Shown one piece after another: positions 15,645 to 22,463 of a DNA stretch of 64,000 nucleotides (positions within the stretch are counted from its first letter, which is position 1; each line of letters begins with the position of its first letter). Source of the DNA: Pirellulales bacterium. Its GTDB lineage: Bacteria > Planctomycetota > Planctomycetia > Pirellulales > JACPPG01. The position numbers were made by a program, and so were the translations under genes. A model generated the notes under the pieces. The model saw only the letters and a program-made list of their open reading frames with translations. It was not told the origin of the DNA and made no database searches. The stretch lies in assembly GCA_036490175.1 (NCBI GenBank), contig DASXEJ010000119.1:1-64000 (forward strand). Reading direction: 5' to 3'.

Positions 15645-16946
15645 TTACGCACAGCGGCGGATCAACAGACAACTGGCTTGCCCCTGCGGCGTAACGCTCA
15701 GCTTTAGAAAGCTATCGCCCGGCGGAATGTCGCGGCCGGTGACAGCTGCGACGGGGCATTCCGGATCAGGAGTTTCGTAATTCAGGATCGGAAACAACTG
15801 ATTGTGCGCAAGCGCCAGCGTGCCGGCGATCAATTCCACGATGCCGCCGCCGGCGCCCAAGTTGCCGAAATAGCTCTTCGCTGCGGTGACTGGCACAGAG
15901 GTAGACCGGCCATTGAATACTTCGCGGATCGCGGCCGCTTCTTCGGCATCGCCGCTGCGCGTGCCCAGCCCGTGTGCGTTGATGTGGCCGATGTCGGCGA
16001 CCGTGAAACCTGCATCGCGGAGCGTGCTGCGGATGGCGTTGCCCAACGCCTTGGCGCGCTGCGCAACACGGCTGCGGTCGATGACCGACGATGAGCCGGC
16101 CCCCACGATCTCGGCGTAAATTCGCGCGCCGCGCGCCTGGGCCGCGCCTAGTTCTTCCATCAGGATCGCGCCGGCCCCTTCGCCCAACACCATGCCTGAG
16201 CGATTCATATCGAACGGACGACTGGCCCGTTGGGGATCTTGTTCGCTGTGGGCGATCTCTTCTTGAATCACGGCGTGCAGGGCCTTCATTGGATGGACGC
16301 GCGTGCCGGTGGCGCCGGCCAACATGCAATCGGCATGGCCGCGTTGGATCACGCGAAAGGCTTCGCCCACGGCCAAATTCGAGGCCGCCTCGCGCAGCGT
16401 CAGCGAGTTGTTCGGCCCGCGATAGTCGTTGTAAATCGCGATATGGCTGGCCGGCATATTGGGCAAATACTTCAACAGCCACAGCGGCGACAGTTGCGAC
16501 ATGCCGGTCGAGGCCCAGCGCGAGAACTCGAACTTGCGATCCTCGGGCGCACAAACCCGCATGGCCGAGGTGAATTCGTCGGGCGCGGTCAGCATATAGT
16601 CGGAGCCGAAGACGACACCTGCGCGTTCCGGATCGAGTACCCCCGGCGATATTCCGGCGTCGTGAATGGCGCGCTGGGCCGCGGCGACACCCATTTGGGA
16701 CTCGCGACACATTACCTTCAGACCCTTGCGGATCGCCTTTTTCAGCTCGCCTTCGAGCGGGCCAAAATCATTGATGTGGCCGGTGAAGTCGCGGGCCTGG
16801 CCGGCGAAACTGCGGGCCAGGACGCCCTGATCGGCCGGCACCGGTGCCACGCCACTGCGCCCCTGCTGCAGAGCTTGCCAGAGGGATTCCACCGTGTTGC
16901 CCAGGGGCGAAATGGCCCCCATGCCTGTAATGACGACACGCCTCAC
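15645..16946 (-). CDS. Degenerate beta-ketoacyl-ACP synthase (KAS) paralogue, Cys and one His replaced
   Basis: The 433-residue product is a full-length thiolase-fold ketosynthase (MRRVVITGMGAISPLGNTVE; GMVLGEGAGAILMEEL; HINAHGLGTRSGDAEE). Aligned by eye with the FabF encoded at 18612-19865, the nucleophile segment (Fab[14 protein letters not shown]) reads GPNNSLTLREAAS, so Cys163 becomes Glu186. FabF His340 (KSQLGH) becomes Asn362 (KSYFGN), while the first His is kept (His325). The C-terminal GFGGHN loop is also lost. It cannot be a normal condensing enzyme. Chain-length factors of type II polyketide and aryl-polyene systems also lack the Cys and pair with an active KS, so a heterodimer or scaffold role is possible; that is inference. 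Confidence 0.9.
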   Translation of the reverse strand: MRRVVITGMGAISPLGNTVESLWQALQQGRSGVAPVPADQGVLARSFAGQARDFTGHINDFGPLEGELKKAIRKGLKVMCRESQMGVAAAQRAIHDAGISPGVLDPERAGVVFGSDYMLTAPDEFTSAMRVCAPEDRKFEFSRWASTGMSQLSPLWLLKYLPNMPASHIAIYNDYRGPNNSLTLREAASNLAVGEAFRVIQRGHADCMLAGATGTRVHPMKALHAVIQEEIAHSEQDPQRASRPFDMNRSGMVLGEGAGAILMEELGAAQARGARIYAEIVGAGSSSVIDRSRVAQRAKALGNAIRSTLRDAGFTVADIGHINAHGLGTRSGDAEEAAAIREVFNGRSTSVPVTAAKSYFGNLGAGGGIVELIAGTLALAHNQLFPILNYETPDPECPVAAVTGRDIPPGDSFLKLSVTPQGQASCLLIRRCA

Positions 16947-17055: not shown

Positions 17056-18339
17056 CTAGTAGCGGCCGTGGTAAGTGCGGGCTTCGCGCTGCGTGGGTGC
17101 CACGGGTACCGGCGAAGTATCCCCCACTTTCCCCTTGTTTTCGACCAGCACCAACAGATCGGCCCGCGATCCGGCGTTGGACCAGGGCATCGGCACTTTC
17201 AACGTGCCCGTATCCGTAGGCACGGGTGTCGGCACTACGCCCAGCCCGACTAGCAGCACCTGGCTCGTGGGCCAGCGGAAGCGCTCGTGCAAACGGCAAT
17301 GCGTGATCTGCGGCACCTCGACCTTGACCCGCTGATGCGGCGCGACCTGGCTGGGCACGTCCATCATCACCGGCACGAGCCGTTCCAATTGGTCGATGTG
17401 ACATTTAATCACGGCGTCGATCGAGTGACCGTCGATAGATAGCAGCGGATTCAGCTCGAGCGCGAATCCCTCGTCGAACTGCCCCATCTCGGGCTCGAAG
17501 GCCGGCCATGCGTTGGGGTGCAGCGTGATGTCGCGGGTGTAGGTCTTGGGACGGGTGGCGGCGACCGTGGCCGACTGCCCGTTGTTCACTAGCATCTGCG
17601 GCGAGCTATGTTCGCGAAAGTCCGTGCGCTTGCGCAACTCGGCCAACAATAGGGCAACATCCTCTTTTTCGACGAGCCAGGCCTGGATACCCTGCGTCTG
17701 CACCGCCACGGGATGCAGCATTTGTTTGGCTTTCACGCGCCAGTCAGGATGGCCGATCGTGACCACGCGAATGCTAAAGGCGCTCGTCTCGGCCTCGGTA
17801 TTGACGAAACGATCGACAATGTCCGCCACTCGGGCCTGAATCTCGGGCGTGTGATAAACACGCAGCGTGCGTTGATTGGCGCTGAGGAAACCGAACGGCT
17901 CGGAATGCCAGGCCTCGTAGCCCGTGTCGCGCAGGATCCAGTCGACGATGGCTTGCTCGGGCCGATTGGTCGAAGTTACCCGCACCACATAGGGCGTAAT
18001 GTCGTATTCGCGCCATACCTGGCCGGCGTCGTTCGGTAGCGCGCCCGAACCTTCGGTGACGCGGGCGATAGGCTGCCGCGGCGTCTCGGGCGGAGCGCCC
18101 GCCAACGGCGCGCCGCCGGAATTCAGCGGAGCGACACCATCATCGCTCACGCCACTGGTTTGCTGGATCGTCTTATCGACAACAGGCCGCACCGGCGCAG
18201 GAGCGGCCCGCGTGGTGGGCGAACGCCACTTGCCAGTGGCACGACCCGAGCTCGGCGGAGCACTGGTTGTTTGTGCCCGTGCGAGACTACTGCCAGCCAG
18301 AACCACGGCCAGCGTCATCAACAGACCTTTGGCAAACAT
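17056..18339 (-). CDS. Exported secretin-like domain protein
   Basis: I chose the ATG at 18339 because a perfect AAGGAGG lies 8 nt upstream and the product then opens with a signal peptide (KGLLMTLAVVLAGSSLARA). A Pro/Ala/Thr-rich segment leads to residues about 110-330, which recall secretin-family sequence: TLRVYHTPEIQARVADIVDR resembles an N-domain, and MLVNNGQSATVAATRPKTY resembles the start of a secretin beta domain. LELNPLLSIDGHSIDAVIKC adds the usual 'P.is.dg..v' pattern. It is too short for a normal pore-forming secretin. It lies between fabF and the degenerate KAS gene. The domain call is moderate and function is unknown. Confidence 0.6.
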   Translation of the reverse strand: MFAKGLLMTLAVVLAGSSLARAQTTSAPPSSGRATGKWRSPTTRAAPAPVRPVVDKTIQQTSGVSDDGVAPLNSGGAPLAGAPPETPRQPIARVTEGSGALPNDAGQVWREYDITPYVVRVTSTNRPEQAIVDWILRDTGYEAWHSEPFGFLSANQRTLRVYHTPEIQARVADIVDRFVNTEAETSAFSIRVVTIGHPDWRVKAKQMLHPVAVQTQGIQAWLVEKEDVALLLAELRKRTDFREHSSPQMLVNNGQSATVAATRPKTYTRDITLHPNAWPAFEPEMGQFDEGFALELNPLLSIDGHSIDAVIKCHIDQLERLVPVMMDVPSQVAPHQRVKVEVPQITHCRLHERFRWPTSQVLLVGLGVVPTPVPTDTGTLKVPMPWSNAGSRADLLVLVENKGKVGDTSPVPVAPTQREARTYHGRY

Positions 18340-18503
18340 CGTCACGGCCTCCTTGCCGAAACTCGCCCGCGCCTGAAGTTGCGCGCGTGCCCCCCTCGAT
18401 TGAGGTCGGGGAGTATAGGTCGAGCGCAAAAGAGGGACAAGGCCGATCGGCGCGGGCCGCAACGCAACCGTGCGCCGCCAGACTGCTGGTTGCACCGCGA
18501 TGC

Positions 18504-18611: not shown

Positions 18612-19865
18612 CTAGCCGTGATGTCCGTTGCGAAGTCGTCCCACGATCACGGTCGCGTTGTGTCCGCCAAACCCAAAGCTATTGGACATGGCCGTGACCA
18701 CCTTGCGCTCGCGCGCCTGGTTGGGGGTATAGTCCAAGTCGCAAAGCGGGTCGGGATTGTGATAGTTGATCGTGGGCGGGATCACATTGTGACGCAGCGC
18801 CAGCACGGATAGCACCAATTCCACACCGCCGCTCGCGCCTAGAAGATGCCCCAACTGGCTCTTGGTGCTGGAAATGCTGAGCTCGCGGGCGTGTTCCTGG
18901 AACACCGACTTAACCGCGACCGTTTCCGCCTGATCGCCGAGCAGAGTGCTGGTGCCGTGCGCATTGATATACGTGATATCTTCGCGAGGCACCTGCCCGT
19001 CGCTCAAGGCATAGGCCATCGCCTTGGCGGCGCCCGTGCCATGCTCGTCGGGGTGGGTTATATGCCCGGCGTCGGAGCTGAGCCCGTAGCCCAGCAGTTC
19101 GGCGTGGATCTTGGCACCGCGGGCCTTGGCGTGCTCGAGTTCTTCGAGCACCAACAGTCCGGCCCCTTCGCTGAGCACGAACCCGTCCCGTTCGCGATCG
19201 AACGGGCGGCTGGCTGCCGGCGGATTATCGTTCATCTCCGACAGCGCACGCATGTTGGCAAAGCCGCTGATGCCCATTGGCGTCAGGGCAGCTTCGGTGC
19301 CGCCGGTGACCATCACGTCGGCATCGCCGTACTGAATGGCCTTGTACGAATCACCGATGGCATTGGTGGCGCTGGCACAAGCCGTGGCGACAGCCGCGCT
19401 GGGCCCGCGCAGGCCGAACTGGATGGACACCTGGCCGCAGGCGGCGTTGACCATCAGCTTCGGAATGGTGAAGGCCGACACCTTGTCGGGCCCTTTTTCC
19501 AAGAGCCGCGAGTGCTGCGCTTCGATCTCGTTGAGACCGCCGATACCGGTCCCCAGGATGACACCGCAGCGAAACGGGTCTTCTTTAGAGAAGTCGATAC
19601 CCGAGTCGTTCACGGCGTCAATGCCGGCGACCATGGCGAACTGCGTAAAGCGGTCGAGCCGCTTTGCATCCTTAGCTGAGATGTAACCGTCCGTGGTCCA
19701 GTTTTGAACTTCCCCGCCAAACTTCACTCGAAACTGAGTGGTGTCGAACGAGGTCAGCGAATGGACCCCGCTTTCACCCTGGCAAATGCGTTGCCAGAGA
19801 TCGTCGACTCGGCAGCTTAAGGAAGTGACCGTTCCTAGGCCGGTTACGACAACGCGTCGTTTCAT
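18612..19865 (-). CDS. fabF: 3-oxoacyl-ACP synthase II (FabF)
   Basis: The 417-residue product has the full KAS II catalytic set: Cys163 in [13 protein letters not shown], His303 in [11 protein letters not shown] and His340 in [13 protein letters not shown], with the C-terminal [11 protein letters not shown] loop. It condenses malonyl-ACP with growing acyl-ACP in fatty-acid elongation. Its ATG overlaps the acpP stop codon (ATGA), so the two are translationally coupled. The catalytic set here makes the loss in the neighbouring paralogue at 15645-16946 easy to see. Confidence 0.97.
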
Positions 19866-20110
19866 TTATGTCCGTTGGACTGCGACTTCTCGATGTAATC
19901 GATGGCCTGACCGACGGTCTGAATCTTCTCGGCGGCATCGTCCGGGATATTGATATCGAACTCTTCCTCGAGTTCCATGACCAATTCCACGGTATCCAGG
20001 CTATCGGCGCCTAGATCGTTCACGAATGAAGTCTCGGGCGTGACCTGATCTTTGCTTACGCCAAGCTGTTCGGCCACGATGTCAATCACTCGTTCTTTAA
20101 CTGAGGCCAC
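19862..20110 (-). CDS. acpP: Acyl carrier protein
   Basis: The 82-residue product carries the 4'-phosphopantetheine attachment site in [19 protein letters not shown] (the Ser of DSL) and the acidic helix II expected for ACP. The start is a GTG at 20110 with AAGGAGG about 9 nt upstream. ACP carries acyl intermediates for FabD, FabG and FabF, all encoded around it. It overlaps fabF by four bases. A promoter of its own is likely in the 412-bp gap upstream. Confidence 0.97.
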
Positions 20111-20522: not shown

Positions 20523-21293
20523 TTAGGCCGTCAGACCGCCGTCGACCGTCAGCACTTGCCCCGTGATGTACGATGCGGCCCCGCTGGCTAGAAACAGCAC
20601 CGCACCCAACACCTCGTCCGGGTGCCCCAACCGGCGCACCGGAACACGGGCGACAACCTCTTCCAGCACTTTCTCGCCCAAGGCCGCGGTCATCTCGGTC
20701 TCGATAAAGCCCGGCGCGATCGCGTTGACTGTGATCTTGCGGGTGGCCAACTCGCGGGCTACCGAGCGCGTCATACCGATCAGGCCCGCCTTTGATGCCG
20801 AATAATTTGCCTGGCCTGGGTTACCCATCAAGCCCGACACGCTGGCGATATTCACGATGCGACCGTAACGTGCTTGCATCATCGGCCGCGTTACGGCGCG
20901 GGTGAACAGAAATGGCCCGCGCAGGTTGGTGCTGATCACGTCGTCCCACTGCTCGTCCTGCATGCGCGGTATCAATCCATCCCGCGTGATGCCGGCATTG
21001 TTCACCAGGATATGCAGCTTCTCCCAGGACTCGAGGACTGCTTCGACGGTTTGCTGGACACTCTCGCCACTGGTGACATCGCAGGCCAACGCTTGCGCCG
21101 TGCCGCCGGCCGCGGTAATCTCGGCGACCGTGGCCTGTAGCTTTTCGACGTCGCGAGCGACGCAGGCCACACGTGCGCCAGCATGCGCCAATCCGACAGC
21201 GATCGAGCGCCCTAGTCCGCGTGAGGCGCCGGTGACCAGCGCCGTTTGGCCCCGCAAATCGACCGACATTTGAGCGTTGATGGTCTCTGCCAC
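20523..21293 (-). CDS. fabG: 3-oxoacyl-ACP reductase (FabG)
   Basis: The 256-residue SDR product has the NADP-binding GASRGLGRSIA, the structural NNAG and the catalytic Ser-Tyr-Lys set (IASVSGLMGNPGQANYSASKAG). It ends with the TGQVLTVDGG signature. It reduces 3-oxoacyl-ACP in fatty-acid synthesis. The start is GTG at 21293 with AGGAG 8 nt upstream. SDR paralogues are common, but the position between fabD and acpP makes FabG the clear assignment. Confidence 0.95.
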   Translation of the reverse strand: MAETINAQMSVDLRGQTALVTGASRGLGRSIAVGLAHAGARVACVARDVEKLQATVAEITAAGGTAQALACDVTSGESVQQTVEAVLESWEKLHILVNNAGITRDGLIPRMQDEQWDDVISTNLRGPFLFTRAVTRPMMQARYGRIVNIASVSGLMGNPGQANYSASKAGLIGMTRSVARELATRKITVNAIAPGFIETEMTAALGEKVLEEVVARVPVRRLGHPDEVLGAVLFLASGAASYITGQVLTVDGGLTA

Positions 21294-21554: not shown

Positions 21555-22463
21555 TTATTCCATGACCGACTGGCAGGAAACCTTGCGGTCGATGCGCCGC
21601 AACAATCCTCGCAACACGCGGCCGGGGCCCACTTCGTAAAACTGATCGAAGCCTTGCGCCATGAGGTAGCGCAGCGAGTCTTCCCAACGCACCGGATGCA
21701 CGACCTGCTTGACCAAGAGTGCGCGAATCTCTTCCGGGTTTGCGTGCGTCTGGGCATCGACGTTCGACACGACCGGAATCTTGGGATCGTGCATCTTTAC
21801 CTTTGCCAGACCGGCCGAGAGACGCGCCACGGCCGGTTCCATGATCTTGGTATGGAACGCGCCGGCCACAGCTAGCGGCACAGCCTTCATGGCTCCGGAC
21901 TTCTCGGCCAACTCGGCAGCCCGCTCGCAGGCAGCGTTGCTGCCCGAGATGACGATATTGCCGGGGCAGAGCAGATTGGCGATCTCGAGTACGTCGGCGC
22001 CACGAGCCTGATCCACCACGGCCTGCACTTGTACCCGCTCCAAACCCAAGATGCTGACCATGCCACTCGGGCTGGCATCGGCGGCGTTCTGCATGGCGGC
22101 GCCGCGCAGTTGCACCAGTCGCAATCCATCCTCGAATTCCAGCACCCCGGCGAACACCAGGGCCGTGTACTCGCCCAGGCTCAAACCGGCGGCAGCTTCG
22201 CAGGAAAGGACCACGTCGGGCGATTGCGACCGCAACAACTCGACCGCGGCCAGGCTGGTGACAAACAAAGCCGGCTGGCTGATCACGGTCGAATCGAGTT
22301 CTTCGGCTGGCCCCTCGAAGCACAGCTTCGCCAGGTCGAAGCCGAGAATCTCATTGGCGCGATCGAACAATTGCCTGACTGCGGGGAGGGAATCGGCCAA
22401 CGCCGCCCCCATGCCCACGGTCTGAGCCCCCTGACCTGGAAATAGAAATGCGATCTTCGACAC
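21555..22463 (-). CDS. fabD: Malonyl-CoA:ACP transacylase (FabD)
   Basis: The 302-residue product starts MSKIAFLFPGQGAQTVGMG, the FabD hallmark. It contains the nucleophile motif AAGLSLGEYTALV (Ser in GLSLG), and the catalytic His lies in GAFHTKIMEPA. It moves malonyl groups from CoA to ACP. The gene lies between rpmF and fabG on the minus strand. The plsX and fabH genes that often separate rpmF and fabD are missing here. Confidence 0.96.
   Translation of the reverse strand: MSKIAFLFPGQGAQTVGMGAALADSLPAVRQLFDRANEILGFDLAKLCFEGPAEELDSTVISQPALFVTSLAAVELLRSQSPDVVLSCEAAAGLSLGEYTALVFAGVLEFEDGLRLVQLRGAAMQNAADASPSGMVSILGLERVQVQAVVDQARGADVLEIANLLCPGNIVISGSNAACERAAELAEKSGAMKAVPLAVAGAFHTKIMEPAVARLSAGLAKVKMHDPKIPVVSNVDAQTHANPEEIRALLVKQVVHPVRWEDSLRYLMAQGFDQFYEVGPGRVLRGLLRRIDRKVSCQSVME

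What the first reader, a model, noticed from the sequence alone, without database searches (positions are those of the whole stretch)
15645..16946. Ketosynthase paralogue with active-site Cys to Glu and His to Asn, near the fab genes
The gene at 15645-16946 is a full-length KAS by alignment with the FabF at 18612-19865, yet the nucleophile position is Glu186 (FabF Cys163) and the second catalytic His is Asn362 (FabF His340). The first His is kept. Chain-length factors (KS-beta, aryl-polyene ApeC) also lack the nucleophile and pair with an active KS, but with Gln or other residues. A Glu at this site beside primary fatty-acid genes is unusual. It may be a partner subunit that modulates FabF or a separate polyene-like pathway, or a malonyl-ACP decarboxylase of the KSQ type. 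Only the substitution is observed; the role is inference.
Basis: partly seen in the sequence, partly recalled or inferred. Interest (0 to 1): 0.75.

Follow-up and report, generated by a model that had tools for sequence, protein, structure and literature searches.

The report
Conserved nucleophile-less ketosynthase in planctomycetes
A relative of a fatty-acid-building enzyme has lost its catalytic cysteine for a glutamate in every one of about 120 related planctomycete bacteria examined; it is probably a non-catalytic partner that pairs with an active sister enzyme, though the substitution itself was first reported in 2009.

Summary
The gene (minus strand, 15645-16946, 433 aa, intact) is a full-length KAS-II-fold protein with Glu186 at the FabF Cys163 column, His325 kept and Asn362 at His340; the GFGGxN gate loop is also replaced (VTPQGQA). 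It is not a one-off: Glu is invariant in 120/120 orthologues and Asn in 119/120. Within-genus dN/dS is 0.07-0.18.

The substitution was published: Rattray 2009 (PMC2649909, Table 2) lists Glu163/His298/Lys328/Asn333 for Rhodopirellula baltica NP_866153. What appears new is the context. In sister orders and other classes the homologue sits immediately upstream of a Cys-His-His ketosynthase ("KS-C") in a locus with hot-dog dehydratases, reductase and ACP. Its nucleophile is Glu/Asp there, and still Cys in one distant family. KS-C is in 149/149 class genomes, including this one (unlinked). KS-E and KS-C share a 13-15-residue segment that FabF lacks.

Best explanation: a chain-length-factor-like, non-condensing subunit derived independently of actinomycete KS-beta. 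The ancestral partner is probably KS-C; partnership with FabF, beside which it lies, is not excluded (mirror-tree ambiguous). A KSQ-type decarboxylase is less likely: the His is lost in 9/120 and FabH is present.

The parts
15645..16946 (-). KS-E: nucleophile-less ketosynthase paralogue, 433 aa, GTG start
   Evidence: AlphaFold2 mean pLDDT 91.1, KAS-II fold
16389..16391 (-). codon GAG, Glu186 at the FabF Cys163 column
   Evidence: Glu in 120/120 orthologues
15972..15974 (-). codon of His325 (FabF His303)
   Evidence: His in 111/120 orthologues
15861..15863 (-). codon of Asn362 (FabF His340)
   Evidence: Asn in 119/120 orthologues
16443..16607 (-). residues 114-168, longer than in FabF by 13-15 residues; same length class as in KS-C
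   Evidence: 58 residues in 7/7 FabF, 71-78 in 27/27 KS-C, 71-75 in 75/75 KS-E; lowest model confidence lies here
15675..15695 (-). residues 418-424 VTPQGQA in place of the FabF GFGGHN gate loop
17056..18495 (-). predicted secreted protein of unknown family between fabF and KS-E (signal-peptide-like start MFAKGLLMTL at about 18339)
   Evidence: upstream of KS-E in 50/80 named loci
18612..19865 (-). fabF, canonical Cys-His-His
   Evidence: TIGR03150 607 bits, cut-off 493.75
19862..20110 (-). acpP
   Evidence: sequence; conserved next to fabF in related loci
20523..21293 (-). fabG
   Evidence: sequence
21555..22463 (-). fabD
   Evidence: sequence

Best explanation
KS-E is a non-condensing, chain-length-factor-like subunit. 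It keeps the KAS fold but cannot form the acyl-Cys intermediate. It would form a heterodimer with an active Cys-His-His ketosynthase and shape the acyl tunnel across the dimer interface, so setting chain length or substrate. The ancestral partner is KS-C, the active KS of a hot-dog/SDR/ACP locus that all class members sampled carry (contig C193 in this genome). In the lineage of the window's order and of family f21 the KS-E gene duplicated, and one copy settled beside fabF; whether that copy still serves KS-C or now pairs with FabF is unresolved (my weighting about 60:40 for KS-C). Shown: the substitutions, their conservation, the tandem pairing of homologues, the shared insert. Inferred: heterodimerisation, partner identity, effect on the product.
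For: (1) Glu 120/120 and Asn 119/120, with purifying selection (dN/dS 0.07-0.18). (2) Presence in 39/40 genomes of the order, 20 families (the remaining genome is 83% complete). (3) Homologues directly upstream of KS-C in at least 31 of 33 listed genomes of class families f99-f103 (coordinates compared by hand) and in 12 genomes of other classes. (4) Sequences read for these tandem pairs: the first KS is Glu/Asp (Asn in L071) with the two His positions drifting, the second is Cys-His-His. (5) In family f34 the first KS of the pair still has Cys-His-His (L057-L060), which suggests a route from an active pair. (6) KS-E and KS-C share a 13-15-residue extension absent from FabF, in a region that in FabF contributes to the dimer interface and pocket (own knowledge of KAS II structures). 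(7) Two f21 genomes carry a window-type KS-E (Asp) beside a KS-C-type gene (L207, L208). (8) KS-C present 149/149 in the class; four genomes that lack a clear second KS-E copy (G013, G020, G030, G037) have KS-C plus the window-type KS-E.
Against: In this order KS-E and KS-C are unlinked, and KS-E is beside fabF in 26 of 60 named loci with at least 4 kb upstream and also beside FabF in f21 (L085). Mirror-tree partial correlations are a little higher for KS-E/FabF (0.47) than for KS-E/KS-C (0.31), and KS-C correlates best with the second KS-E copy (0.43); the contrasts keep their sign in only 81% and 87% of subsamples. No direct evidence of a heterodimer. Profile matches to solved structures are better for FabF (314 bits) than for actinorhodin CLF 1tqy_B (186 bits).
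Confidence: 0.6

Rival explanations
1. Same chain-length-factor-like mechanism, but the physiological partner of the window copy is FabF: a FabF/KS-E heterodimer modulates primary fatty-acid chain length.
For: Gene order fabD-fabG-acpP-fabF-HYP-KS-E in about a third to a half of the order's loci and next to FabF in f21. Partial correlation KS-E/FabF 0.47, Mantel p 0.0005.
Against: FabF lacks the shared insert; in 34 of 60 loci with 4 kb upstream there is no fabF upstream; linked genes share history, which inflates the correlation; ancestral tandem partner is KS-C.
Confidence: 0.25
2. A KSQ-type malonyl-ACP decarboxylase that makes acetyl-ACP primers, with Glu in the place of Gln.
For: First His and Lys335 mostly kept; Cys to Gln in FAS/PKS KS domains is known to give decarboxylases (own knowledge). 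Two basic residues that align with the FabF ACP-docking helix (K74, K77) are invariant in 19 diverse members.
Against: The His is Gln, Phe, Arg, Asn or Tyr in 9/120 orthologues and Asn in the C308 paralogue; the second His and the gate loop are gone; FabH over its curated cut-off is present in this genome and in most relatives (33/40), so no primer gap; Glu is not Gln.
Confidence: 0.1
3. A different chemistry using Glu186 as acid/base or as ligand-binding residue, for example recruitment of a non-FASII acyl unit, as Rattray et al. proposed for the anammox paralogues.
For: The acidic residue is the most invariant feature (Glu 120/120; Glu or Asp in nearly all tandem homologues); PMC2649909 makes this proposal.
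Against: Conserved also in organisms that make no ladderanes; no conserved extra motif; His partner drifts.
Confidence: 0.05

Closest known systems
R. baltica NP_866153 (RB4527) and NP_865682 (RB3714), Rattray et al. 2009, PMC2649909
   Same: Glu163, His298, Leu300, Lys328, Asn333, Glu342, Pro392 match the window protein; RB3714 has Asp163 like other KS-E homologues. Very probably the same family.
   Different: That paper tied them to ladderane paralogues and a possible recruitment role; it did not describe class-wide conservation, the tandem KS-C, or a chain-length-factor-like role.
Type II PKS chain length factor / KS-beta (actinorhodin, 1tqy_B)
   Same: Full-length KAS fold without nucleophile; homologues encoded in tandem with an active KS.
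   Different: Glu/Asp instead of Gln; no specific sequence affinity to CLF; the active KS is second in the pair; in this genome the pair is split.
Aryl polyene ApeO-ApeC
   Same: Active KS plus degenerate KS with dehydratases, reductase and ACP and no enoyl reductase in the locus.
   Different: ApeC is about half size (PMC8358021); KS-E is full length.
FabF (KAS II)
   Same: Nearest solved structures (TM 0.85) and 33% identity to the window's FabF.
   Different: No Cys, no second His, no GFGGxN loop; TIGR03150 273.5 bits against a cut-off of 493.75.
KSQ decarboxylase domains
   Same: Nucleophile replaced by a longer polar residue.
   Different: Glu not Gln; second His lost; first His not invariant.

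Membership tests
FabF / KAS II (TIGR03150) | score over curated cut-off | tested here: not met
   273.5 against 493.75 bits
FabF / KAS II (TIGR03150) | Cys-His-His triad | tested here: not met
   Glu-His-Asn
Chain length factor / KS-beta | KAS fold without the nucleophile | tested here: met
Chain length factor / KS-beta | encoded in tandem with an active KS | tested here: inconclusive
   not met in this genome (C119 against C193) nor order; met in homologues of sister orders and other classes
Chain length factor / KS-beta | Gln at the nucleophile position | tested here: not met
   Glu 120/120
Chain length factor / KS-beta | sequence closer to CLF than to FabF | tested here: not met
   1tqy_B 185.7 bits, FabF 4ls5 314.2 bits
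Chain length factor / KS-beta | forms a heterodimer with the active KS | not testable with these tools
   no complex prediction available
KSQ-type malonyl-ACP decarboxylase | Gln at the nucleophile with both His kept | tested here: not met
   Glu; Asn at second His; first His 111/120
KSQ-type malonyl-ACP decarboxylase | malonyl-ACP decarboxylation | not testable with these tools
   needs an assay

The most novel reading that the evidence does not exclude
A chain-length-factor-like subunit evolved in Planctomycetota independently of actinomycete KS-beta, by stepwise decay of one half of a tandem KS pair, and in one lineage was captured by the primary fab operon so that FabF now works as a FabF/KS-E heterodimer in membrane-lipid synthesis.
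Probability: 0.2. Interest if true: 0.75.

Novelty: new variant of a known kind. Interest (0 to 1): 0.5.

Why it matters
Chain length factors are known from specialised metabolism. A nucleophile-less KS that is conserved across a class of bacteria, with an active partner in every genome sampled, suggests that KS heterodimers may also serve core lipid metabolism. The phylum holds what look like intermediate states (Cys-His-His, Asp-His-His, Glu-His-Asn), so the origin of such subunits can be tested. It also offers a reading for the unexplained degenerate KS paralogues of planctomycetes reported in 2009 in connection with ladderane lipids; I did not test the anammox proteins themselves.

Tried and rejected
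One-off mutation or decay: rejected. FabH substitute: rejected, FabH present. Specific relation to known CLFs: not supported. Mirror-tree to choose the partner: inconclusive. IQ-TREE bootstrap: first run failed on thread count, second timed out before support values; the topology agreed with FastTree on the groups used here. Papers on KSQ enzymes gave nothing on Glu variants. The R. baltica record is not in the annotated collections, so identity with NP_866153 rests on the published residue table. The unusual ACP of the C193 locus matched only generic ACPs in the PDB.

Full report
Observation. The gene at 15645-16946 lies on the minus strand, downstream of fabD-fabG-acpP-fabF. P0001 (433 aa) is intact and matches both Pfam ketoacyl-synthase domains. 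Against the window's FabF (33% identity) it has Glu186 at Cys163, His325 at His303 and Asn362 at His340. It also lacks the GFGGHN loop and has a longer stretch before the nucleophile. The FabF equivalog model scores it far below cut-off. The AlphaFold2 model is a KAS-II fold (mean pLDDT 91.1, best PDB matches all FabF, TM about 0.85), with lowest confidence between about residues 110 and 170.

Conservation. All 40 genomes of the order searched have a relative, and 39 have a full-length orthologue at 50-77% identity (in the remaining genome, 83% complete, the best match is the other paralogue). Over 80 named GTDB loci, among them Blastopirellula marina DSM 3645, Rhodopirellula rubra and Bythopirellula polymerisocia, plus 40 genome search orthologues, Glu is invariant (120/120), Asn 119/120, Lys335 119/120, Glu349 120/120, while the first His is kept in 111/120. 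Within the genus dN/dS is 0.07-0.18.

Prior art. Rattray et al. 2009 (PMC2649909, Table 2) list R. baltica NP_866153 with Glu163, His298, Leu300, Lys328, Asn333, Glu342, Pro392, and NP_865682 with Asp163, beside degenerate paralogues of the anammox bacterium Kuenenia. The substitution is therefore not new. The authors suggested recruitment of non-FASII units. A 2023 catalogue of type II PKS lists Planctomycetes among phyla with KS-CLF hits (PMC10132072), without details that I could read.

Paralogues in this genome. Two more Glu-type KSs exist: C308:9711-11048 (Glu-Asn-Asn, 48% identity, beside a fatty-acid desaturase) and C94 (Glu-His-Asn, 43%, L075:8823-10088). A separate locus on C193 (L076) encodes a FabA-like hot-dog protein, an SDR reductase, an ACP with a long C-terminal part, a second FabA-like hot-dog protein and a Cys-His-His ketosynthase, KS-C.

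The tandem pair. In other classes the homologue of KS-E lies directly upstream of the homologue of KS-C in an operon of the same make-up (L079 and L081 read in full; further pairs). Within the class, KS-C was found in 149/149 genomes, and comparing coordinates by hand, KS-E is immediately upstream of KS-C in at least 31 of the 33 listed genomes of families f99-f103 (of the other two, one pair lies on different contigs and one KS-C row was not listed). Sequences of 14 pairs within the class were read: first gene Glu or Asp, second gene Cys-His-His. In f34 the first gene is still Cys-His-His. The two His positions of the first gene drift freely in tandem homologues (Gln, Thr, Phe; Thr, Ser, Gln, Met), the acidic residue does not.

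Tree. FastTree (116 sequences) puts the Glu/Asp proteins apart from FabF and KS-C, except the Asp-type L056, which falls next to the f34 first KSs. Window-type KS-Es of the order and of f21 form one clade (support 1.0); its sister is the C308/C94-type group, and both together (0.999) sit inside the tandem KS-Es of f99-f103. So a duplication followed the tandem state, and all three KS-Es of this genome are co-orthologous to the tandem one. Two f21 genes (L207, L208; Asp) that lie beside a KS-C-type gene fall inside the window-type clade.

Interface segment. From the Gly of the FabF LGTG motif to the nucleophile, FabF has 58 residues (7/7), KS-C 71-78 (27/27), KS-E 71-75 (75/75), the f34 first KS 72 (4/4). 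By established knowledge of KAS II structures this region contributes to the dimer interface and the acyl pocket. The shared extension fits KS-E and KS-C being descended from one duplicated KS and fits a KS-E/KS-C dimer better than a KS-E/FabF dimer.

Which partner? Arguments for FabF: linkage in the order (fabF upstream on the same strand in 26 of 60 loci with 4 kb of upstream sequence) and in f21 (L085), and mirror-tree partial correlations (KS-E/FabF 0.47; KS-C/C308-type 0.43; KS-E/KS-C 0.31). The contrasts are not firm (81% and 87% of subsamples) and linkage itself can produce the first. Arguments for KS-C: ancestry, the insert, L207/L208, and four genomes with KS-C and the window-type KS-E but no clear second copy. 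I leave this open, at about 60:40 for KS-C.

Decarboxylase. A KSQ-like role is not excluded but is less likely: Glu not Gln, second His and gate loop gone, first His dispensable in 9/120 and in the C308 paralogue, and FabH present.

Verdict. A real, old, conserved non-canonical KS family; substitution already published; the chain-length-factor-like reading and its tandem-pair basis appear new but are inference from genome context. Interest 0.5, new variant of a known kind.

Noticed in passing
window 17056-18495 (-): A predicted secreted protein with no Pfam match even at E 10 lies between fabF and KS-E; a homologue is upstream of KS-E on the same strand in 50 of 80 named loci, more often than fabF (31 of 80).
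   Followed up: partly
L076 7848-12036 (G000:C193): A second fatty-acid/polyketide-like locus (two FabA-like hot-dog proteins, SDR, ACP with long C-terminal part, KS-C); its KS was found in every one of 149 class genomes and its product is unknown.
   Followed up: partly
L057-L060 (family f34): Tandem KS pairs in which both members keep Cys-His-His, possibly the ancestral state of the KS-E/KS-C pair.
   Followed up: partly
L207, L208 (family f21): Extra window-type KS-E (Asp-His-His/Asn type) beside a divergent KS-C with a CVSSAQA/CVSATQA active site, perhaps a specialised-metabolite pair.
   Followed up: no
L123, L125, L133, L145, L153: MAG records titled Candidatus Kuenenia stuttgartiensis carry Pirellulales-type fab/KS-E loci; the titles look wrong.
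   Followed up: no
L017: The only orthologue of 120 with His instead of Asn at the second-His column.
   Followed up: no
G000:C244 3763-6057 (L002, L004): A contig with a long open frame holding two ketosynthase domains, probably a type I polyketide synthase.
   Followed up: no
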